This document shows, piece after piece, positions 8,433 through 60,958 of a stretch of DNA of 64,000 bases. The translations under genes were made by a program, and so were the position numbers. The DNA comes from Methanoculleus oceani (GTDB taxonomy: Archaea > Halobacteriota > Methanomicrobia > Methanomicrobiales > Methanoculleaceae), in contig NZ_QFDM01000003.1 in NCBI RefSeq assembly GCF_023702065.1, positions 310,001-374,000 of the forward strand. The letters are read 5' to 3'. Position 1 is the stretch's first letter. Every line of letters starts with the position of its first letter. The notes under the pieces are model-generated. The model was given only the letters and a program-made list of their open reading frames with translations, had not been told where the DNA came from and ran no database searches.

Positions 8433-8746
8433 GTAGTTACCTCACGAGAGTCGTTCCGGCCGCTGTAGCAAGGCCGGCAATGACTTGTTTGCTCAGAGGA
8501 GATATATGCAAGTCGGTTCTGGCATACGGCGTGAGGATAAAGGATATCCGACCCCGGCCGCTGTGACCGGCGGCACGATCTCACGGACAGGGAGCCCGAC
8601 GCGGACTTGCGCGCGTGTGCATCAGGGTTGTGGAGGCCGCAGGGATACCGGCCCGGAGGCACCCATTCAGGGAGCGGCCTCTCCCGTCCGGAACCTTGAT
8701 GGGCAGGCGGAAGAGACCTTGCAGGGAAGAGAAGACAGGAGTCGCC
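8433..8746. other. Intergenic region (314 bp)
   Basis: Divergent gap between the ferritin-like and glycosylase genes. No gene or strong repeat is seen; an in-frame upstream extension of the glycosylase to 8615 exists but lacks family sequence. Confidence 0.5.
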
Positions 8747-9337
8747 ATGATCCTTCCACCCTCGTTCTACGAACGCGATACCGTGACCGTTGCAAAGGAC
8801 CTGCTGGGGTGCCTGCTCGTGCACCGGGAGGAGACAACGACGATGGGATGGATCGTCGAGGTCGAGGCCTACCTCAGGGGGGACCCGGCGGCCCACTCGT
8901 ACCGGGGAGAGACGAAGAGGAACAGCGTCATGTTCGGCCCGCCGGGCCATGCTTACGTCTACCTGATCTACGGTCTGCACACCTGCGTCAACATCGTGAC
9001 CGGATCGGAGGGCGCGGGGGAGGCGGTCCTGATCCGGGCTCTCGAGCCGGCCATTGGGCTCGACCTGATACAGGAGAGGCGGGGGATGAACGACCCGGTC
9101 TCGCTCGCGAGCGGCCCGGGCAAGCTGACGCAGGCGCTCGACATCACCATGGACCTGAACGGGACCTCCCTGTACAACGGTCCTCTCCAGGTCGGATCGC
9201 CAGACAGCCTGCCCGGCCGCCGCCCTGAAGGATTCCCCGGGGAGATCGTGCAGACGACCCGGATCGGGATCACGAAGGCGGCGGACCTCCCCCTCCGGTT
9301 TTACCTGAAGGGGAGCCGGTACGTCTCGCGGCGGTGA
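8747..9337 (+). CDS. DNA-3-methyladenine glycosylase, AAG/MPG family
   Basis: Base-excision repair enzyme that removes alkylated purines. The 196-residue product matches the AAG family: the LPPSFYERDTVTVAKDLLG N-terminus, EVEAYLRGDPAAHSYRG with the catalytic Glu and DNA-binding residues, MFGPPGHAYVYLIYG with the intercalating Tyr region, and LIRALEP plus GPGKLTQAL. The start at 8747 has AGGAG five bases upstream and begins at the usual N-terminus; longer in-frame starts at 8615 and 8699 add nothing recognisable. Its 3' end overlaps the convergent ferredoxin gene by 68 bases. An AlkD-like alkylation repair gene lies about 4 kb downstream. Confidence 0.92.
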   Translation: MILPPSFYERDTVTVAKDLLGCLLVHREETTTMGWIVEVEAYLRGDPAAHSYRGETKRNSVMFGPPGHAYVYLIYGLHTCVNIVTGSEGAGEAVLIRALEPAIGLDLIQERRGMNDPVSLASGPGKLTQALDITMDLNGTSLYNGPLQVGSPDSLPGRRPEGFPGEIVQTTRIGITKAADLPLRFYLKGSRYVSRR

Positions 9338-51496: not shown

Positions 51497-51607
51497 GCAC
51501 AGTGGATGATTGTGAATAGCCCGACGAACGCAACTGCAATCCCCGGTCTGGAGATTTCCATCTCCACGAACGGTACTGAGACAGTCAAACATGAAGGCAG
51601 CGCGGAT
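51497..51607 (+). pseudogene. Remnant of a substrate-binding protein C-terminus
   Basis: In one frame the translation (QWMIVNSPTNATAIPG ... ISTNGTETVK) aligns with the C-terminal end of the binding protein at 51655 (RWMIANNLTNATNIPD ... ISTESLSSVK). DNA also matches in blocks such as GTGGATGAT and ATCTCCACG. No family sequence is found further upstream and no start is evident. It is probably what is left of a tandem duplicate of the downstream gene. Confidence 0.55.
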
Positions 51608-51654
51608 CACTCGCCGGCGGGAAGTGTCATGAAGGACACCTCCGGAGCACGGCT

Positions 51655-52662
51655 ATGAAGAAGATCACCGGTATACTCGCCGTGATTGTGCTGCTGGTGG
51701 GGTCTGGCGCATGGTTTTGGGGCATCCAGGAGCCCGGACCGGAAGAGATGGATTCCATCATCGTAGCGTATTCGCCGTTTGAGTCAACCGCGCTTTTCTG
51801 GATCGCCGAAGACCGGCACTTTTTCGAGGAGAACGGCATCGATATAACCCTGCGTGAATACGATTCCGGAGCGGCTTCGCTGGCCGGGGTGGTGAACGGT
51901 GAAGCGGACATTGCCGTGGGGGTATCCGAGTTCCCCCTTGTCCGGAAGGCGTTCCAGAACGCAAACATAAGTGCGATAGGAAACATCGACAAGGGTGAGT
52001 TCATCTATCTTGTCGCACGGCAAGACCGGGGAATCACGAATGTATCCGACCTTAGGGGTAAACGAGTCGGGACCACGATAGGGACCGTATCGGAATTCCA
52101 TCTCGGAAGGCTTCTCATGCTGCATGGCATGACGATGCAGGACATAACCCTCATTGACATCGAAACTCCGGCAGGGTGGGTGAACGCTGTTGCGGACGGA
52201 GATATCGATGCCATTTCAACCGCCCAGCCGTATGCTAATGCGGCCGGAGACCGGTTGGGCGCGAACGCTGTTGTCCTGCCGGCGCAGGGTAGCCAGCCCG
52301 TCTTCGGGCTGATCGTCTCCACCGATGACTGGATAAGAGATCATCCCGACCTCGCGGTCAGGTTTCTTATGTCATTGGCACAGGCTGAGGAATACATCCA
52401 CACTCATCCGGCCGAATCCCGGGCTATCGTGCAGAACCGGTTGAACCTCGATGCCGGGTACATAGATACGGTCTGGCAGCAGAACCAGTTCACACTCTCG
52501 CTTGACCAGTCGCTCATCACCGCGATGGAGGGCGAGGCACGGTGGATGATAGCCAATAACCTCACGAATGCAACGAATATCCCGGATTTCCACGATTATA
52601 TCTCCACGGAGAGCCTTTCAAGCGTGAAACCGGCATCGGTGAACATCATCGGAATACAGTGA
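51655..52662 (+). CDS. ABC-type substrate-binding protein (NMT1/SsuA-like), paired with a kinase
   Basis: A 335-residue exported binding protein. The N-terminal signal or anchor (about 4-24) is followed by a two-lobe type 2 periplasmic fold of the nitrate/sulfonate/taurine/thiamine precursor group (IIVAYSPFESTALFWIAED, FFEENGIDITLREYDSG, VNGEADIAVGV, DLRGKRVGTTIGTVSEF, ADGDIDAISTAQPY). There is no lipobox Cys, so it may stay tethered by the N-terminal helix. No permease or ATPase gene is adjacent. The next gene, six bases on, is a membrane histidine kinase, so a sensing role is more likely than transport. The ligand is unknown. Confidence 0.82.
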   Translation: MKKITGILAVIVLLVGSGAWFWGIQEPGPEEMDSIIVAYSPFESTALFWIAEDRHFFEENGIDITLREYDSGAASLAGVVNGEADIAVGVSEFPLVRKAFQNANISAIGNIDKGEFIYLVARQDRGITNVSDLRGKRVGTTIGTVSEFHLGRLLMLHGMTMQDITLIDIETPAGWVNAVADGDIDAISTAQPYANAAGDRLGANAVVLPAQGSQPVFGLIVSTDDWIRDHPDLAVRFLMSLAQAEEYIHTHPAESRAIVQNRLNLDAGYIDTVWQQNQFTLSLDQSLITAMEGEARWMIANNLTNATNIPDFHDYISTESLSSVKPASVNIIGIQ

Positions 52663-52668
52663 GCGACC

Positions 52669-54147
52669 ATGAAGATCAGGACACAGTTGATCATCAGCAC
52701 CGTGGTTTTCGGGCTGGTTTTGCTCATCATCGCCGTTTCGGTGGTCATCACGGACCAGCAGCTCGATCACCTCAACCGGCAGGAGCAGATCGCAAGCAAA
52801 CTTGCCCAGGGAGCGAACGATCTCAGCTATCTCTCAACCGAATACCTCCTCTACCGTGAGGATTTGCAGCGCACGCGGTGGGAATCGGTGTATACCTCGT
52901 TCTCATCCGATCTCTCGGAGCTCGACCCCCAGACTCCGGAACAGCAGGCACTGGTCGTCAATATCCGGGGCAACCAGAACCGGCTCAAGGAAATCTTTGA
53001 CAGCGTGGCCCAGGTCTATGCGACCTTCCCCGCATCGCCTGATCCGGCAACGGAACCTGTTCTGCAGGTATTGTGGAGCCGGATGGCCGTTCAGACGCAG
53101 GGTATGGGTGCCGACGCCACGCAGCTCGCGCGCATCCTGCACCAGGAGAGGGTGCAACTGGAACAGGCCAACACCCTCCTGATCTTCGCCCTGATGGGCA
53201 CTTTCGCCGCGTATATCTTCACCAGCTACATCCTCTTCTACCGGCGCACTCTGGTGGCGATCGAGAGTCTCCAGAAGGGAGCACGAATCATCGGGTCCGG
53301 CAACCTCGATTACGCCATCGTCGAGACCACCGATGACGAGATCAGTGATCTGTCACGCTCGTTCAACCGGATGGCCGCAGATCTCAAAGGGGTCACCGCT
53401 TCGAAAGCGGATCTCGAACGAGAAGCTGCCGAGCGCAAGCAGGCCGAGGAGGCTCTCCAACGCCAGACCGAAGACCTCGCCCGGCTGAACCGGGATCTCG
53501 AGTCCGCTCACCGGGAGACGAACCTTTACCTGGATATCCTGACCCACGACATCGGGAACACCGAGAATGTCTCGAACCTCTACGCCGACCTGCTCATCGA
53601 CTCCGTGGAGGGGGAGGCGGCCGGGTATGCAGAGAAACTCCGGCGGAGCGTCAGGAAGAGCATCGAGATCCTGGGCACAGTCTCAACCATCCGGAGGATT
53701 TACCGGGGACCGCCTGAACTCCGGGCGACCGAACTCGACGCAGTCATCCGGGAGGAGATCGGCCACTATCCCAACAGCAGCATCCGTTACGAGGGCGCTC
53801 CATACCTGGTGCAGGCCGATGACCTCCTGCCGGAAGTCTTCGGAAACCTGATCGGCAACGCGGTCAAGCACGGGGGTCCCGACGTCGCAATCACCGTCCG
53901 GACCGAGGAGGAGAACGGGTTCGTGCAGGTAACGGTCGAGGATACCGGCCCCGGCGTACCGGATGCGGACAAGCAGGCGATCTTCCACATCTACGAGCAG
54001 AAGAAGCGGGGCGTCGGCGAAGGCCTCGGCCTCTACCTGGTGCAGATCCTGGTCGAACGCTACGGCGGCAGGGTCTGGGTCGAGGACCGGGTGTCCGGCC
54101 GTCCGGAGGAAGGGGCGGCGTTCCGGTTCACGCTCAGAAAGGCGTGA
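52669..54147 (+). CDS. Membrane histidine kinase with HAMP, partner of the binding protein
   Basis: A 492-residue kinase. TM1 (about 7-28), an extracellular helical domain (about 30-170), TM2 (about 171-192), HAMP (about 192-245), a coiled coil with ERKQAEEAL, then H293 in LTHDIGNTENV and a HATPase with NLIGNAVKHGG, EDTGPGVP and GEGLGLYLV. The last 205 residues are near-identical in layout to the kinase at 29945, showing recent module reuse. It is six bases after the binding-protein gene, so the two probably form a ligand-sensing pair. No response regulator is adjacent. Confidence 0.9.
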   Translation: MKIRTQLIISTVVFGLVLLIIAVSVVITDQQLDHLNRQEQIASKLAQGANDLSYLSTEYLLYREDLQRTRWESVYTSFSSDLSELDPQTPEQQALVVNIRGNQNRLKEIFDSVAQVYATFPASPDPATEPVLQVLWSRMAVQTQGMGADATQLARILHQERVQLEQANTLLIFALMGTFAAYIFTSYILFYRRTLVAIESLQKGARIIGSGNLDYAIVETTDDEISDLSRSFNRMAADLKGVTASKADLEREAAERKQAEEALQRQTEDLARLNRDLESAHRETNLYLDILTHDIGNTENVSNLYADLLIDSVEGEAAGYAEKLRRSVRKSIEILGTVSTIRRIYRGPPELRATELDAVIREEIGHYPNSSIRYEGAPYLVQADDLLPEVFGNLIGNAVKHGGPDVAITVRTEEENGFVQVTVEDTGPGVPDADKQAIFHIYEQKKRGVGEGLGLYLVQILVERYGGRVWVEDRVSGRPEEGAAFRFTLRKA

Positions 54148-54498
54148 GATCCGACCTGGAGTAAAGGGTCTCCGATTATTCAACGAATTGATCGGGGACT
54201 CATAAAAATACGATAGCCATGCAAACCGAATCTTCTTGAATCAGGCGCTTTTAGGACATCGCTCTCTAATCAGGGCATTATCTCCCGGATCTCCATCTTT
54301 GTACCCGGTGCTGTGACCATCGTGGAATGCCCGGTTAACCGGATCTCAGACAACTGTTTCGGATGAATTATATAGGTTAAAATTGATTATATAATATTTT
54401 CCATTTGGAAAAATCTTTGATTCGGTGTGATCAGTGATTCCAAACGAAATATTGTTCAGATTGTTAAAACAGCCGGATTTCCGGGGTGTTAAGTTACA
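54148..54498. other. AT-rich regulatory region (351 bp)
   Basis: No gene. The stretch 54360-54420 is very AT-rich, with TATA-like TTATATAGGTTAAAAT and ATTATATAATATTTT. A perfect 7+2+7 inverted repeat (TTTTCCA TT TGGAAAA) lies at 54397-54412. Any transcript starting here would have a leader of 70 bases or more before the ATG at 54499. Confidence 0.5.
54397..54412. repeat. Inverted repeat beside TATA region, possible operator
   Basis: TTTTCCA and TGGAAAA arms are separated by TT and overlap the right edge of the TATA-like block. A repressor bound here could block transcription of the two-gene locus downstream. Confidence 0.35.
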
Positions 54499-55503
54499 AT
54501 GACAGATACCGACAAACTAAACAAAATTCTAGATAGATGCAAAGATGTTGCGTCTGTCGCCGCCGATAAGGCAACCGTAATGGCCGACTCCGCATCAGCC
54601 AGTGTTTCAGCAGGTATCAAGGAGATGCGCGAGGAATCTGCAGCATCTTCGCGTACGGACGACGGCAACTGTTCCCGGGACGGCGATGCTCGCGCAGCGG
54701 CGAAGGCGGGGGAGTGCGTCCTCTCCGGCGAGCTGGCCGTGTCTGGTGCGGCGGAAGATGCACCGGAGATAACGGTCAGGCATTCTGCGGGCGAGGTCGT
54801 GAAAGGATGCGTGCACAAGAGAATCGACGGATTCAAGAGCGGCCTGCAGAATAAAAAACTCCTGATGACCGCAGGAACCATGGCCCTGGTCTGGCTGGCT
54901 CTTACCATACTTCCGGCCATAGGGTTCAATCCGGCGCCCGTGCAGTCCCTCTCCTTCCTGACCTTCGCGCGGGGAGGGCTCTCCGGCGGCGTGCCCGGGT
55001 TTATCGGCGGCCTCATCGGAAAGGGCCTGATCGCCTACTTCGTGACGCTGCTCGTCGTCGGAGGGATATCCGGCGAGAGCATCATGTCGAATGTCCGGTC
55101 AATTGCCGGACAGTTCTCCGGAGGAAAGTGGGATCTGGCGGCGATCTCCCCGCTTCTCGTCGGCGGCGGGGCGGCTCTCTTCGTCTACAACTTCCTCGCG
55201 GGGACGTCGACGATCATGAATTGCATGGTGGGAATCGTGGCGTTCCTCATCGCGGCCCGGGCGCTGGCGAACAAAGCGGGATGCGTGCGGCAGGTCTTTG
55301 CCGCGGTCTTTGCGAAAAACGGCAGGGCCGACTCCGGGCTGGTCACGAAGGTGATGGCGGGATGGGCCGGAGGGTTCGCTCTCGGCGTCATCCTCTCCGT
55401 CTTCGGGGGGTACACCTGTTACATCGCCGGATTCGTCCTCCTGGTGGTCGGTGCCGTCCTCATGGTTACCGTTCAGAAGCAGGCGGGAGGCGTCCCGGCA
55501 TGA
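54499..55503 (+). CDS. Multi-TM protein of unknown function (first gene of two-gene locus)
   Basis: A 334-residue protein. Residues 1-110 are soluble, hydrophilic and Ala/Ser/Glu-rich with helical stretches (KLNKILDRCKDVASVAADKA) and three Cys. Then come about six TM segments (near 121-143, 168-190, 212-236, 240-258, and two in 290-330) with Gly-rich turns. No family is recognised. Its stop overlaps the next gene start by four bases (ATGA), which shows coupled translation with the 1060-residue exported protein. It could be a membrane anchor or export partner for that protein. The upstream region has a strong AT-rich promoter. Confidence 0.7.
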   Translation: MTDTDKLNKILDRCKDVASVAADKATVMADSASASVSAGIKEMREESAASSRTDDGNCSRDGDARAAAKAGECVLSGELAVSGAAEDAPEITVRHSAGEVVKGCVHKRIDGFKSGLQNKKLLMTAGTMALVWLALTILPAIGFNPAPVQSLSFLTFARGGLSGGVPGFIGGLIGKGLIAYFVTLLVVGGISGESIMSNVRSIAGQFSGGKWDLAAISPLLVGGGAALFVYNFLAGTSTIMNCMVGIVAFLIAARALANKAGCVRQVFAAVFAKNGRADSGLVTKVMAGWAGGFALGVILSVFGGYTCYIAGFVLLVVGAVLMVTVQKQAGGVPA

Positions 55504-58500
55504 GGCCGATGGCGAAACTGCTGCTCGTGCTCCTTGCAGCCTCACTGCTCTCGGGAACCGCGGCTGCAAGCTACTCGCTCACCGATACCAACAGCTACGA
55601 CTACAAACTGGCGAGCAAGTACATCCACAGCATGGAAGGCGACGAATACGTCGTCGAGATGCCGATCGATGTCTACAGGAAAGGGACGGACGACCTTCTT
55701 GCAACCGAAAACACCCTGCTGATCATCGGCAACCTCGGGAGGGTAGACCCCGAAGCGGAGCGGCTTGTCCTGACCGAGATCCCGACAGACGTTTACAGCT
55801 ACACCTACCAGGGCGACGCAGGCGGCGGCGAGATCAGGCAGATTACGGGAAAAGTCACCGCCGGCCGCTACATGTTCACCGAGTTCGGGATAAACCTGAA
55901 GTACAAGACGGCGGGGGAGTATGCCGCCTACCTGAAGACCGAACTGGAAAAATCGGTTGAGACTTCCAGCGCAAATATCGAGTACGTGGATACGACCATA
56001 AACGGACACCGCGTCGTCGGTGTGCGCGAGTTGACGGACGACCTCAACTGGGCGGCCGGCGGCGACGTCTCGGACAATCACCTGGAGAACACGTTCACCT
56101 ACTACGTGATCCGTGAGGACTTCTACCCGGCGGGTTCGGGGCTTGCCTACTTCAAGATACGGGGCCATGTCGGTCTCGAGCATGACAACGGCCGGAGTTT
56201 GACGTATGATCCGCTTCCCTCGGAGAGCCAGGTGGCTACGGCACGCTCCGAGATGAGTAAGGCTTACCAGGAAGCGAACCAGGTCGTGGACTCGGTTATC
56301 GCCGATGCGGCGAACGCAAAACCAACGCTTATCGTCGGGAACTATGAAGAGGTCTTCGGCGGCTACGGCGCCGGCTCGTTCACCATCAACACTCCGGGCG
56401 GGGGCGCCGGCGAGACCGAATACGGCATACCGCTCGTGGTCGTGACCGGTATCTTCTCCGCGGGGGCCGCGGTTGCGGGCGCTGCAGCGGCGGCCGGCGG
56501 CGGCAAAGGCGGCAGCGAGACGGAGCGCACCAGCACCTACAAGATGAGGATCCGCAAAGACTTTGAGGATTACATCGTCTGCGGGAAGAGCCCCGAGACC
56601 ATATACGCCCAGATGGTCGAGATCACCGCGGAAGGCGAGACGATCGAGAGGGACGACCTTACCGCGACGCTCTCGATAACCTCCGGCGGCGGGCTCCGGG
56701 TCGAAGACCCGGCGCTCGCCGGCAGCTACATGGGAGCCTTCGTATCTGCGGATGAGAACGAGCTCGCGGAAGAGGGCATCGTCAGGGTGGCCTACACAGG
56801 AAAGGGCGGATCGTTCACGAACAACATCCATTTCCGGATCATCGGCGAGCCGAGAGTCACGTTCCCCGAGCAGGGAGAGGCCATGGACATGCGGCTGAAC
56901 GTCCTCTACGGCGACGGCAAGACCTACGATGTCGAGGTCGAACTCGTCGACTTCATAGAGCCACCGAAGGAGGTCACGATCACTCAAGCCGACGAGGCGC
57001 CGTTCACGAGCTCCTTAGAGAAGATCGACGAGACGCACTATGTTGCAAAGATCGTCAACACGAGCCCGTTGCCCGAGAAGGGAGCGCCGGTGACGAGATA
57101 CGGTGCGAGAGTCATCGCCACCCGCGAGGATGACGAGGTCGTCGAGGAAGCGTTCACGGTGATCTTCTACCCCGAGGGTCTCAGCGTCACCGACGTCGTC
57201 TACGACAAAGAGGGACACGCCCAGTTTGCGGCCTACGACGATCGGGACACGGAAGAGGACGACGTTGCAGTGACCGGGTTCATCGTGAACCTCGCCGTCA
57301 GGGTGACCGAGAACGGGAAGGAAGTGGTGAAACTCCTGGACGGGACCGAGTACGCGCCCGAGTTCGGCGAGATCAAGGGAACCGAACCGAGAACGGAGGT
57401 CCTTGCCTCGAAGTTTAAGTACACCATCGAGAAGAAGCCGGACAACACCAACAAGGCCTACAAGTTCACCCCTGCCCAGCAGATCGGTGAGGACGAGAGG
57501 AACCCGTACTTCCTGGAACTCCCGATCACCTGCGAGTACGGTGACGAGACCTACGAGCTCGATCTCCCCATCCGACTCATCGGGGATAAACTCGGGGTGC
57601 GCAAGGACCGCGAGACCGAACTTGCGAACCTGAAGAAGAGGATCCAGAAGTTCGGCATCAATCCGGACACCGCCCGGTTCCTGCGGGAGAACGTGCAGAA
57701 CTTCACTGCCGCCGAGCTCCGCCTGATGAGCAAGAAGATCGTTTACGACTCGATCGTCTACTACACCCAGGAGTCGGCGGACTTCATGGAGACCGCCCAG
57801 ACCATGGACGACTGGATCACCTTCCTCTCCGTCGTCAAGTGGTTCGGCGACCAGGCGTTCTCGTACCTCATGACCATCTACACGGGGCCTGCGGGAGAGG
57901 CGATCCTCACCCCCACAAAGGAGCTTACGGTCGAACTGATCGGCGAGATGTCGGCCGACCTCTTCATGGGTAACGGGGTGAGCTGGGACCAGATCAAGGT
58001 CGGTACGCACATCTCCGAGATGATCGAGAACTACACCAAGTCGTGCTTCGAGGATCTGGCGACAGCGAACCCGAAGAAGCTCGCCCAGGTGATCGCGGGG
58101 CTCTGCGTCTTCAACCTGGTGCGCCACTACACCTTCGATCTCGACGAGAACGGGAAACGCAGCCTGTACAATGCGATCATCTCGTCGTTCTCCGACATCT
58201 CGCTCGAGTTCTTCAAGAACAAGTTCTCGGGCTTCCTCAAGGGCAAGGTCAACGACCCGAATTCGAGCATCTCCAAGCTCCTGAACTCGTCGGCGGCCAG
58301 GATGCTCGAGGACATGATGCCGGAGGGGAAACTCGCGGTTCCGGGCGTGAACACCCTCACGGAAGACGTAGCGGTAGGCCCCATCCTCCAGAAGTACGTG
58401 GAGGAGATCTTCGGCTTCGGTGCGTCCTACGTGACGCAGGAGTTAGGAACGGCGGCTGCCGAGACCCTCTATGTGAAGGTGAAGGTCGGCGTCCCCAATT

Positions 58501-58682
58501 CGGACCGGGAGATCGACTGGTACGTCTTCATAGACCCGATCAAAGCGGCCGACAAACTCCTGGATTACATCTTCACGTCGCTCTACGAGAAGTTCCCGTT
58601 CCCGACCGCGGAGCCGGGAGAAGCCTGCAAACCTCGCGACCCGCTCTACATGGACCCGTCGACCAACCAGCGGATCGGATGA
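55500..58682 (+). CDS. Large exported protein of unknown function (1060 aa)
   Basis: Begins with a signal peptide (about 1-23, KLLLVLLAASLLSGTAAA). Residues 25-300 form an external domain rich in Tyr and charged residues. A hydrophobic Ala/Gly segment (about 308-335) is probably a TM helix. From about 340 to 690 come repeated beta-rich stretches resembling Ig-like folds. From about 700 to the end the protein is helical and less polar (LKKRIQKFGINPDTARFLREN, FMETAQTMDDWITFLSVVKWFGDQAF). No domain is recognised. The start is fixed by the signal peptide; the reading frame extends upstream inside the previous gene. It is translationally coupled to that gene. Confidence 0.75.
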   Translation: MRPMAKLLLVLLAASLLSGTAAASYSLTDTNSYDYKLASKYIHSMEGDEYVVEMPIDVYRKGTDDLLATENTLLIIGNLGRVDPEAERLVLTEIPTDVYSYTYQGDAGGGEIRQITGKVTAGRYMFTEFGINLKYKTAGEYAAYLKTELEKSVETSSANIEYVDTTINGHRVVGVRELTDDLNWAAGGDVSDNHLENTFTYYVIREDFYPAGSGLAYFKIRGHVGLEHDNGRSLTYDPLPSESQVATARSEMSKAYQEANQVVDSVIADAANAKPTLIVGNYEEVFGGYGAGSFTINTPGGGAGETEYGIPLVVVTGIFSAGAAVAGAAAAAGGGKGGSETERTSTYKMRIRKDFEDYIVCGKSPETIYAQMVEITAEGETIERDDLTATLSITSGGGLRVEDPALAGSYMGAFVSADENELAEEGIVRVAYTGKGGSFTNNIHFRIIGEPRVTFPEQGEAMDMRLNVLYGDGKTYDVEVELVDFIEPPKEVTITQADEAPFTSSLEKIDETHYVAKIVNTSPLPEKGAPVTRYGARVIATREDDEVVEEAFTVIFYPEGLSVTDVVYDKEGHAQFAAYDDRDTEEDDVAVTGFIVNLAVRVTENGKEVVKLLDGTEYAPEFGEIKGTEPRTEVLASKFKYTIEKKPDNTNKAYKFTPAQQIGEDERNPYFLELPITCEYGDETYELDLPIRLIGDKLGVRKDRETELANLKKRIQKFGINPDTARFLRENVQNFTAAELRLMSKKIVYDSIVYYTQESADFMETAQTMDDWITFLSVVKWFGDQAFSYLMTIYTGPAGEAILTPTKELTVELIGEMSADLFMGNGVSWDQIKVGTHISEMIENYTKSCFEDLATANPKKLAQVIAGLCVFNLVRHYTFDLDENGKRSLYNAIISSFSDISLEFFKNKFSGFLKGKVNDPNSSISKLLNSSAARMLEDMMPEGKLAVPGVNTLTEDVAVGPILQKYVEEIFGFGASYVTQELGTAAAETLYVKVKVGVPNSDREIDWYVFIDPIKAADKLLDYIFTSLYEKFPFPTAEPGEACKPRDPLYMDPSTNQRIG

Positions 58683-58695
58683 TCCCCGGTCGATC

Positions 58696-58703
58696 TTTTT
58701 TTT
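58696..58703 (+). terminator. T-tract terminator after the two-gene locus
   Basis: Eight T residues follow 14 bases after the stop codon, in GC-rich DNA. T-runs alone can end archaeal transcripts. No strong hairpin precedes it. Confidence 0.45.
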
Positions 58704-58759
58704 GCGACTGTTCGCCCGGGGTCGTTCGGCTCCGGGGTTGCACCGGATTTCGGATCGGT

Positions 58760-58945
58760 TCATGAGGCCGTCATAGAGTTGCCTTCGTTGAAGTCCAGAA
58801 AGAGGTTGCCGGCGATCGGGTCCGCGTATGCAGGCACCCGCGCCTTCACGTCGTCGCATACCGCTGATTCCTCGGTCATGCAGAGACTCCGGCAAGGAGG
58901 GGCAGGGCGGCGAGGAACGGGATCCGGGGGAAACTCAGAGGATAG
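58760..58945 (-). pseudogene. Decayed third copy of the DUF3887-like lipoprotein
   Basis: Minus-strand sequence from 58945 first encodes a signal-like LSFPRIPFLAALPLLAGVSA in one frame, matching the other copies' signal peptides. A frameshift at the lipobox then moves to the frame reading CMTEESAVCDDVKARVPAYADPIAGNLFLDFNEGN, which matches CMSQETVVS...YADPIADN...FNEGN of the copy at 42146. After GN it stops at TGA without the C-terminal two thirds. So it has a frameshift and a truncation. Confidence 0.65.
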
Positions 58946-59006: not shown

Positions 59007-60041
59007 CTATCCATTGCCTTCCCGCAGCAGGGTGGAGATGTCTTTCTCGGTCCTGCAGAGGCGCACCATCGATTGTGCAATCCGGTAAGGGTCAACCTCT
59101 TCCCCGAAGAAGAACTGAAGCCTCGTCCATCCGAACGGGTCGGTAACCAGCTCGACCCGTTGCGTATCCGGGATCGCTGTGGAAAGATGATCGCGGAGTC
59201 CGGGCAGGAAGTCCGCAACCTTCGGGTACTCTCTGTGTCTGACCTGTATCTCGATACTGATCGAATCCTTCCAGTCGCCAAACTCGTAGTGCACCGCTGC
59301 CGGCCACCCTTCGCGGTATACGCGGACGTTCTCCCTGGTCGCATGCGTTGAGAATATGGGCGGCTTTAACTTCGAGAACTTCTCGACGATCAACCGGAGC
59401 CGCAACCTCTGTCTCTTTATCTCCGGATCCGCCTCTCCCGATACCAGGAAGCGAGAATGGTAGAAGTACTCGTGCCTGCTGAGCCGGTAGCGCTCGACCA
59501 CCAGCAACCGCAGATCGAGATCGCTGTGTTCGTTGAGGTAACTGAACTCCCGGATAAGGTCGTTCGGGGCAGCGTCGAGGACGATGATGCCCCGGATCTG
59601 CCCGGCTCTCAAATACGAGGCAACGTTGCTCTTCAGCAGGGCGAGCCGATCTTCGGGATTCTCTTCTCCTTCTGCGCCGGCCATAGATTGCAATGCTTCT
59701 TCGAGAAGGCCTGCAGATCTCTCGTTCACCTCGTCGGGCGTAAGTCTGCCCATTGCAGAGAGGTAGTCGCAGAGCCGGCCGACTGCTTCACGCCGCGACT
59801 CCTCGTTGCGGGACAGTTTCACCTCGACGATGACCGGCAGCCCATTGCTGTCGATGAGAAGGATATCGGCGAATCCGCCTTCGAACGGAAACTCCCGGCT
59901 GATCGTGACGAGCGCGGAATCGCCCCGGTCGACGAGGAGCACCGGATGCCCGGCCAGGATCTCCTGCAGTTCGTACTCGTTCCTGAAGGGTTCCGGCTGC
60001 TGGGCCAGCTCGCTCCCTTCGCCTATTCGTATCGCAGGCAT
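59007..60041 (-). CDS. PD-(D/E)XK nuclease-like protein
   Basis: A 344-residue protein. Residues 50-95 carry a PD-(D/E)XK-type core: FEGGFADILLIDSNG (Asp on a strand), then VIVEVKLSRNEESRREAVGRL (the ExK and the following helix), as in NucS/DUF91-like and restriction-like nucleases. EYELQEILAGHPVLL before the core is also typical of these families. The C-terminal 170 residues (HSRFLVSGEADPEIK, SISIEIQVRHREYP) are unlike any family I know. Activity is predicted on DNA, perhaps in repair or defence. GGAG lies five bases before the ATG. It belongs to an accessory-looking stretch next to a nucleotidyltransferase gene on the same strand. Confidence 0.7.
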   Translation of the reverse strand: MPAIRIGEGSELAQQPEPFRNEYELQEILAGHPVLLVDRGDSALVTISREFPFEGGFADILLIDSNGLPVIVEVKLSRNEESRREAVGRLCDYLSAMGRLTPDEVNERSAGLLEEALQSMAGAEGEENPEDRLALLKSNVASYLRAGQIRGIIVLDAAPNDLIREFSYLNEHSDLDLRLLVVERYRLSRHEYFYHSRFLVSGEADPEIKRQRLRLRLIVEKFSKLKPPIFSTHATRENVRVYREGWPAAVHYEFGDWKDSISIEIQVRHREYPKVADFLPGLRDHLSTAIPDTQRVELVTDPFGWTRLQFFFGEEVDPYRIAQSMVRLCRTEKDISTLLREGNG

Positions 60042-60161
60042 CGAATCTCCATAGCGAATATGGCGGGAGAGGTTGATATGTTTATCAATAGAACGGGTAT
60101 CGCGTCATTCGCGTATCAGGCAGCGCCATCGCGAAGTTACCGCCCGCGCTCCTGCTCGATC

Positions 60162-60455
60162 TCATGCAACAAGGAGATCCCGGGTAACCGATCTCCGGAT
60201 CTCCGGGCGGAGTGCCGCCTCCGGCACGACGTCCACGCCGGACCCGAGTTTTTCTTCGAGGTACTGTGACAACCCGACGAAGTCGAAGAGATCCGCACCG
60301 GAACCGAACTCGACAAGTACGTCGATATCGCTGCCCTCCTCCTGTTCCTCACGGGCATACGACCCGAAGAGAGCGATACGCTCGACATGATAGCGCTCTC
60401 TGAGTTCGGCCTTCAGGGAGCGGAGGATCTCGAGGACTTCGGTGCGGGTTTTCAT
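60162..60455 (-). CDS. Minimal nucleotidyltransferase (MNT), orphan
   Basis: A 97-residue MNT-domain protein. The signature GS-x10-DxD is complete (GSYAREEQEEGSDIDVLVE), and a second Asp (VDVVPEAAL) completes the site. Such proteins (MntA type) usually act as antitoxins that AMPylate a HEPN toxin encoded next door. The downstream 120 bases on this strand hold no HEPN gene, so it is an orphan. ATG 60455 has GGAG ten bases upstream; GTG 60464 is too close to it. Confidence 0.8.
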   Translation of the reverse strand: MKTRTEVLEILRSLKAELRERYHVERIALFGSYAREEQEEGSDIDVLVEFGSGADLFDFVGLSQYLEEKLGSGVDVVPEAALRPEIRRSVTRDLLVA

Positions 60456-60529
60456 GTGCGTCACGCTCCTGCTGTATGTCCTCTTACGCTCGCGGATTGG
60501 TTTAATCTATTGTTCTCCGTGGGAGCATC

Positions 60530-60958
60530 GGCCCCGGCCACCTCCCGAACAATCTGACAGTGGCAAAAATCCGGGCTGGTAACTCCAATATCAGGAATCC
60601 GATCCTGGCATCGTACGTCGCAAAGGGGCTGCTGCCATACCGCGGCCTCGGCTCCGGCATCAAACGGGCACTCGAAGACTGGCCCGAGATCGACTTTGCC
60701 GATGACCGGGACGGCTGTCTCTTCACCGTCACTGTTCACCGAAAGGAGGAGAAAAGTTCGGAGAAAAGTTCGGAGAAAAGTTCGGAGAAAATCCTCGCGC
60801 TCCTGAAGGCAGAACCCCGGCTGGCAGCCAGAGAGGTCGCAGAAAGGCTGGAAATCACGCAGAGAGCGGTTGAAAAGCAGATCGCCAAACTTCGTGAAGA
60901 TGGTCGGCTCCGTCGCATCGGCCCTGCCCGGGGCGGCCACTGGGAGGTGCTGGAATGA
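60530..60958 (+). pseudogene. C-terminal remnant of an AlbA/AAA_4-type transcriptional regulator
   Basis: The open frame starts in the middle of a recognisable family: GPGHLPNNLTVAKIRAGNSNIRNPILASY and LLPYRGLGSGIKRALED are internal sequences of AlbA_2/HATPase_c_4 (RecG-like) regulators. A SSEK-repeat linker and a C-terminal winged helix (REVAERLEITQRAVEKQIAKL) follow. The N-terminal 300 or so residues are missing and a TAA closes the frame just before at 60503. It could still produce a short DNA-binding protein from GTG 60560. Confidence 0.7.
60752..60791 (+). repeat. Three perfect 12-bp tandem repeats (SSEK linker)
   Basis: The unit AAAAGTTCGGAG occurs three times in a row followed by AAAA, in frame inside the regulator remnant. 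It encodes repeated SSEK residues, a flexible charged linker. Copy number could vary by slippage. Confidence 0.7.

What the first reader, a model, noticed from the sequence alone, without database searches (positions are those of the whole stretch)
54499..58682. Unrecognised coupled two-gene locus: multi-TM protein plus 1060-residue exported protein
The two genes overlap by ATGA and follow a distinct AT-rich promoter with an inverted repeat, then end in a T-tract. The first protein has a Cys-containing soluble head and six TM segments; the second has a signal peptide, a mid TM helix, a long beta-rich region and a helical end. Neither resembles a family I know. The size and coupling imply a two-component envelope structure or an export/anchor pair.
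Basis: partly seen in the sequence, partly recalled or inferred. Interest (0 to 1): 0.65.

Follow-up and report, generated by a model that had tools for sequence, protein, structure and literature searches.

The report
Relocating two-gene membrane module of methanogens
Two always-paired genes of unknown family, found in some methane-making archaea and a few bacteria, encode a six-span membrane protein and a large partner that most likely sits mainly inside the cell, and in this genome the pair appears to have moved to a new chromosomal place, which makes it a candidate accessory surveillance or conflict system.

Summary
In detail: P1 (54499-55503, 334 aa, six membrane spans) and P2 (55500-58682, 1060 aa) overlap by ATGA, with a conserved TATA/palindrome upstream and a T-tract downstream. 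Neither matches a known family above cut-off. The pair is real and obligate: 19 of 19 Methanomicrobiales genomes with P1 have P2, under purifying selection. Distant pairs with the same ATGA overlap occur in three Bacillota genomes, where P1 starts with a zinc ribbon. In Acetoanaerobium the P1 domain is fused to a large ecto-TM-cytoplasmic protein. The reading 'exported envelope protein' is probably wrong: cysteines, charges and the fusion put the last ~720 residues of P2 inside the cell. That part is conserved from archaea to bacteria; the outside domain is not. The pair is accessory. Most other carriers in the genus keep it beside an M13 peptidase gene; here that site lacks the pair, and two relatives show the window site without it. 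Flanks are richer in defence-type genes than control segments, but not at every site. Most likely it is a two-subunit accessory membrane module for surveillance or conflict. Function is inferred, not shown.

The parts
54149..58770 (.). segment absent from the corresponding place in a relative without the pair; outer limits of the relocated cassette
   Evidence: G070 aligns to window 51498-54148 and again from 58771 with only 425 bp between; G059 to 54000-54149 and from 58995. No target-site duplication seen.
54367..54412 (+). TATA-like stretch and palindrome TTTTCCATTTGGAAAA (54397-54412): probable promoter/operator
   Evidence: kept in most genus relatives
54499..55503 (+). P1, 334 aa: soluble head aa 1-115, six membrane spans aa 121-325
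54499..54843 (+). P1 head, predicted cytoplasmic; a zinc ribbon stands here in bacterial relatives
54859..55473 (+). P1 six-span domain with the conserved SxLTFAxG...IGGxxGK and NF motifs
55500..58682 (+). P2, 1060 aa
55500..55571 (+). P2 signal peptide (aa 1-24)
   Evidence: (span 4-22) and the TAAA-SYS cleavage context
55572..56414 (+). P2 ectodomain aa 25-305; mixed alpha/beta; no detectable relation to the bacterial ectodomains
56433..56489 (+). P2 transmembrane span aa 312-330
56532..57599 (+). P2 beta-sandwich region aa 345-700, predicted cytoplasmic
57600..58679 (+). P2 helical region aa 701-1060 with conserved KxFGDQAFSYLxTxY
58696..58703 (+). T-tract, probable archaeal terminator

Best explanation
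P1 and P2 are two subunits of one membrane complex encoded by a compact cassette with its own promoter and terminator. P1 is a six-span partner with its N-terminus in the cytoplasm. P2 is a receptor-like, single-span subunit: a lineage-specific domain outside, and a conserved beta-sandwich plus helical body inside, beside P1. The outer domain most likely senses or binds something at the cell surface and the inner body gives the response. The module is accessory (lost, decayed and relocated between close relatives) and most likely serves surveillance or conflict (virus or rival) rather than a structural role. Shown computationally: pairing, divergence pattern, distribution, empty and vacated sites. 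Inferred: physical complex, topology, relocation within the genome rather than loss plus regain, sensing and conflict role.
For: Co-occurrence 19/19 in 232 order genomes, with only decayed pieces of P2 found alone. ATGA junction kept from archaea to Bacillota. P1-domain fusion in Acetoanaerobium. Post-span part of P2 homologous between phyla (hhalign E 4.5e-68) while the ectodomains are not (E 0.7, identity as in shuffles). Topology cues: charge flanks, cysteines, fusion. Purifying selection, median dN/dS 0.19-0.29. Most genus carriers have M13 then the pair, several with FecR-like downstream; in G000 M13 and FecR-like remain at C1:63-67 kb without the pair and the window site lacks the pair in G070 and G059. 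Trees and dS fit inheritance within the lineage. Flank proteins hit 79 PADLOC families (R-M, Fic, Cas1, candidate systems) against 6 in equal-sized control sets; one Bacillota pair lies beside a type I restriction subunit and PDC-M33A/B.
Against: Some pairs lie among housekeeping genes (G111/G110, G030, G949). No PADLOC hit and no convincing phage-family hit for either protein. No recognisable catalytic domain. Vicinity of defence genes may reflect shared variable regions only; the flank comparison counts redundant families, not independent genes. Tandem Ig-like folds are usually extracellular, which speaks against the inside placement. The structure model of P1 failed (pLDDT 44).
Confidence: 0.42

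Rival explanations
1. Exported envelope structure or anchor pair: P2 is mostly outside, P1 anchors or exports it.
For: Clear signal peptide; model hits of the beta region are tandem beta-sandwich ectodomains such as cadherins, though with low TM-scores.
Against: Second span with basic C-flank in all four proteins checked, cysteine distribution, eight-span fusion.
Confidence: 0.13
2. Envelope-stress or lipid-homeostasis module that is useful only in some habitats, without a role in conflict.
For: Purifying selection, presence in housekeeping neighbourhoods in G111 and G949, co-located secreted M13 and FecR-like genes.
Against: Patchy presence, decay in G071 and G054, relocation, defence-rich flanks in several loci.
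Confidence: 0.22
3. Peptide export, processing or immunity apparatus working with the neighbouring M13 metallopeptidase.
For: In the genus M13 occurs in 14/14 carriers against 3/21 non-carriers (Fisher p 3e-7, inflated by linkage and ancestry); an M13 gene also lies upstream of the G949 pair.
Against: M13 is interrupted or fragmentary in G050, G052, G053, G057 and G077 while the pair is intact (contig ends may explain some); in G000 the two are on different contigs; no M13 match listed for G030, G085, G110, G111.
Confidence: 0.1
4. Selfish or neutral cargo that spreads with variable regions and has no useful cell function.
For: Relocation, patchy presence, decay.
Against: No recombinase, transposase or terminal repeats found in or at the ends of the segment; dN/dS 0.19-0.29 over five regions.
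Confidence: 0.06

Closest known systems
Membrane-associated modules of archaeal 'dark matter islands' (Makarova et al. 2014, PMC4158269)
   Same: Uncharacterised, patchily distributed membrane and secreted protein pairs in variable regions near defence genes; that paper predicts roles in defence, secretion and microbial conflict.
   Different: Methanoculleus and Methanomicrobiales are not named in its main text, membership of a named arCOG was not tested, and this pair is strongly conserved rather than fast-evolving.
Zinc-ribbon membrane proteins (Pfam Zn_ribbon_3 / Zn_Ribbon_1)
   Same: Bacterial P1 relatives begin with CxxC...CxxC (P0003: best E 4.5e-4, below the curated cut-off).
   Different: The archaeal P1 does not have it; the six-span domain has no family.
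Acetoanaerobium noterae 1576-aa protein (L092:8806-13536)
   Same: Has the P1 six-span domain (hhalign E 3.6e-19) followed by span, ectodomain, glycine/alanine-rich span and long C-terminal part: the P1+P2 layout in one chain.
   Different: Its ectodomain and C-terminal part show no detectable relation to P2.
Pfam DUF5305
   Same: Weak hit over the P2 span and the following residues (E 0.0017, 18.3 bits).
   Different: Below the 29-bit cut-off and limited to the span region; not a member.

Membership tests
Known anti-phage defence protein families (PADLOC-DB 2.0.0) | profile hit of P1 or P2 to a listed defence family | tested here: not met
   no hit at E <= 1 for archaeal and bacterial P1 and P2
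Known anti-phage defence protein families (PADLOC-DB 2.0.0) | location beside defence genes | tested here: inconclusive
   defence-type families richer in flanks than in control segments (79 against 6) and beside the G763 pair, but several loci are in housekeeping contexts
Known anti-phage defence protein families (PADLOC-DB 2.0.0) | protection of a host against virus | not testable with these tools
   needs an infection assay
Pfam-A / NCBIfam families | score above the curated cut-off | tested here: not met
DUF5305 | whole-domain match above 29 bits | tested here: not met
   18.3 bits, positions 113-178 of 217 only
Zinc-ribbon membrane proteins | N-terminal CxxC...CxxC in P1 | tested here: not met
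   absent in the window protein; present in the bacterial relatives
Autonomous mobile element | own recombinase or transposase, terminal repeats or target-site duplication | tested here: not met
   only P1 and P2 lie in the segment; no duplication seen on comparison with the site without the pair
Virus or plasmid gene | relatives in viral, phage or plasmid collections | tested here: not met
   no match in IMG/VR scans, INPHARED or PLSDB; the single PLSDB hit is a 2.63-Mb record, probably a chromosome

The most novel reading that the evidence does not exclude
An undescribed membrane-bound immune or conflict system shared by archaea and bacteria, in which interchangeable outer domains detect a threat at the cell surface and a conserved inner body, working with a six-span partner, triggers the response; it is spread as a compact cassette that relocates between chromosomal sites.
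Probability: 0.2. Interest if true: 0.75.

Novelty: new variant of a known kind. Interest (0 to 1): 0.48.

Why it matters
It defines a two-gene membrane module with no family assignment yet kept as a pair across two domains of life, with a clear division into a constant inner part and a replaceable outer part. The relocation and the sites without the pair give natural comparisons for its function. If it is a surveillance or conflict system, it would be a membrane-based type without a described counterpart known to me, in methanogens that matter for biogas and methane emission.

Tried and rejected
Weak matches to P2 residues 325-440 in many Methanomicrobiales genomes (E about 1e-4) fall in an ORF that I recognise as McrC; dismissed as chance. 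The P1 hit in G165 lies in another hydrophobic frame, recognised from memory as an isoprenoid-lipid synthesis protein. Foldseek matches to cadherins have query TM-scores near 0.1 and say only 'tandem beta-sandwiches'. PDB sequence searches found nothing relevant. The P1 structure model was too poor to search. A Mog1/PsbP-like fold for the ectodomain was suspected from memory and could not be tested. FecR-like neighbour as a third component: absent from many carriers and on another contig in G000. G122 (another family, P1 83% identical) as evidence of transfer: its contig is only 6.6 kb in a MAG with 4% contamination, so mis-binning is possible. A direct repeat CGGATGA at both cassette ends was noticed, but the right copy is the conserved coding end of P2, so it is no evidence. 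Papers: no report on this pair found in four searches.

Full report
Observation. P1 (54499-55503) and P2 (55500-58682) are present as described and overlap by ATGA. The promoter palindrome TTTTCC-N4-GGAAAA (54397-54412) is unique in the window (0.01 expected), lies within an AT-rich TATA-like stretch kept in most genus relatives, and the T-tract after P2 is kept in all ten relatives aligned. P1 has six spans; P2 has a signal peptide and one further span at 312-330.

Known families. Neither protein reaches a curated cut-off in Pfam or NCBIfam; PADLOC gives nothing, PHROGs and PDB sequences nothing convincing. The best weak hit is DUF5305 over the span region of P2, 18.3 bits against a cut-off of 29.

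Distribution. In 232 genomes of the order, 19 carry P1 and the same 19 carry P2 (in G076 and G122 P2 is cut by a contig end). G071 and G054 keep only pieces of P2 (residues 779-1060 and 797-868), without P1, which I read as decay. Other hits in those searches were chance. In the genus 14 of 35 genomes have the pair. A 393-genome sample of the phylum gave no match outside the order.

Bacterial relatives. A genome-wide scan found a relative in an Acholeplasmataceae MAG (L076), 27% identical over P2 residues 292-1045, preceded by a 298-aa P1 relative with the same four-base overlap. Two more Bacillota genomes, G763 (L099) and G949 (L113), have the pair, again with ATGA. They are rare: two real hits in 344 sampled genomes of that phylum. 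The bacterial P1 proteins begin with a zinc-ribbon motif. The G949 P1 is interrupted by an assembly gap.

Fusion. In Acetoanaerobium noterae the six-span domain (residues 13-244, hhalign E 3.6e-19) opens a 1576-aa protein that continues with a seventh span, an ectodomain, a glycine/alanine-rich span and a long C-terminal part. That later part is not detectably related to P2. The fusion supports the idea that the six-span domain works together with an ecto-TM-cytoplasmic partner.

Topology and modularity. After a cleaved or anchoring signal peptide, the second span should bring the P2 C-terminus inside. Its N-flank is acidic and its C-flank basic in the archaeal protein and three bacterial ones. 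Among 15 archaeal P2 proteins, 13 have no cysteine in the ectodomain while all have 4-6 after the span. The part from the span onward is homologous between archaea and bacteria (hhalign E 4.5e-68), but the ectodomains are not (E 0.7; 25% identity, within the range of shuffled sequences). Within the genus all regions are under purifying selection, median dN/dS 0.19 to 0.29, lowest in the beta region. So the inside part is the constant part and the outside part is replaceable. This is prediction; Ig-like folds inside a cell are unusual.

Movement. In most genus carriers examined an M13 peptidase gene precedes the pair, and in six of them (G049, G051, G052, G053, G056, G057) a FecR-like gene follows (M13 is only a remnant in G053 and G057). 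In the window genome M13 and FecR-like are still neighbours on contig C1 (about 63-67 kb), with 1.5 kb of other sequence between them and no trace of the pair, while the pair is on contig C3. At the window site, relative G070 aligns up to 54148, the end of a histidine kinase gene, and again from 58771, with 425 bp between; G059 likewise lacks the pair and has a methyltransferase-like ORF there. dS of the pair against genus relatives (mostly 0.2-0.4) is near that of M13, the kinase and the downstream gene (0.31-0.52), and the P1 and M13 trees both place G000 near G063 (M13 support 0.71), so there is no sign of recent import. Relocation within the genome is the simplest reading; loss plus regain from a close relative is not excluded. 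No recombinase, terminal repeat or target-site duplication was found.

Neighbourhood. Ninety-two proteins within 8 kb of the pair in ten archaeal loci were scanned against PADLOC, and 92 from one 16-kb control segment of each of the same ten genomes. The flanks hit 79 families at E <= 1e-10, including type II restriction and methylation, Fic, Cas1 and candidate systems; the controls hit 6, mostly generic by name. Several families describe the same protein, so 79 against 6 overstates the difference; about eight differently named kinds are visible in the shown list. The alignment used for this scan was only a list of unrelated proteins. The G763 pair lies beside a type I restriction subunit and PDC-M33A/B. 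Against this, the pair in G110/G111 is next to ribosomal and translation genes, and the G030 and G949 contexts are not defence-like.

M13 association. In the genus M13 occurs in 14 of 14 carriers and 3 of 21 non-carriers (Fisher p 3e-7), but physical linkage and common ancestry inflate this. In five carriers M13 is interrupted or only a fragment while the pair is intact, so M13 is unlikely to be required.

Mechanism. I propose a two-subunit membrane complex: outer domain of P2 as receptor, inner beta and helical body as output, P1 as six-span partner. Pairing, conservation pattern and relocation evidence are computed; complex formation, topology and function are inferred. Conflict or surveillance is my leading function (about 0.4 including the structural claims), envelope stress the main rival. 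Archaeal variable regions rich in such membrane modules have been described in general (PMC4158269), which is why I call this a new variant of a known kind and not a categorically new system.

Noticed in passing
window 57600-58679: Synonymous divergence falls to about 0.07-0.19 in the last third of P2 against 0.15-0.65 in the rest of the pair, in three comparisons; recombination between species or strong codon constraint could explain it.
   Followed up: partly
window 54148-58771; L133:172-1113; L134:6640-7065: The spot after the histidine kinase stop codon holds different content in three genomes (the pair, a methyltransferase-like ORF, a short stretch): a variable insertion site.
   Followed up: partly
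L116:6993-11356 (G000 contig C1): Vacated home site between M13 and FecR-like genes now holds a small PEGA-like lipoprotein ORF (8669-9139).
   Followed up: partly
L054:6171-6884 and L062:15210-15866: Short ORFs that look like the C-terminal part of Cas1 lie near the pair; Cas1 profiles are among the flank hits, but which protein matched was not shown.
   Followed up: no
L113:2519-4420: An M13 peptidase gene lies upstream of the pair in a bacterial genome as well, with three genes between.
   Followed up: partly
window 59007-60958: Downstream of the pair: a DUF91/NucS-like gene (weak PDC-S11), a small nucleotidyltransferase (PDC-S09) and a 132-aa ORF that looks like a truncated ATP-binding/helicase protein.
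   Followed up: no
L092 (NZ_CP154629.1): This 2.63-Mb 'plasmid' record of Acetoanaerobium noterae carries only 4 annotated features and is probably a chromosome.
   Followed up: no
L060 (G122:C75): A 6.6-kb contig binned in another family carries a P1 83% identical to the window's; transfer or mis-binning.
   Followed up: no
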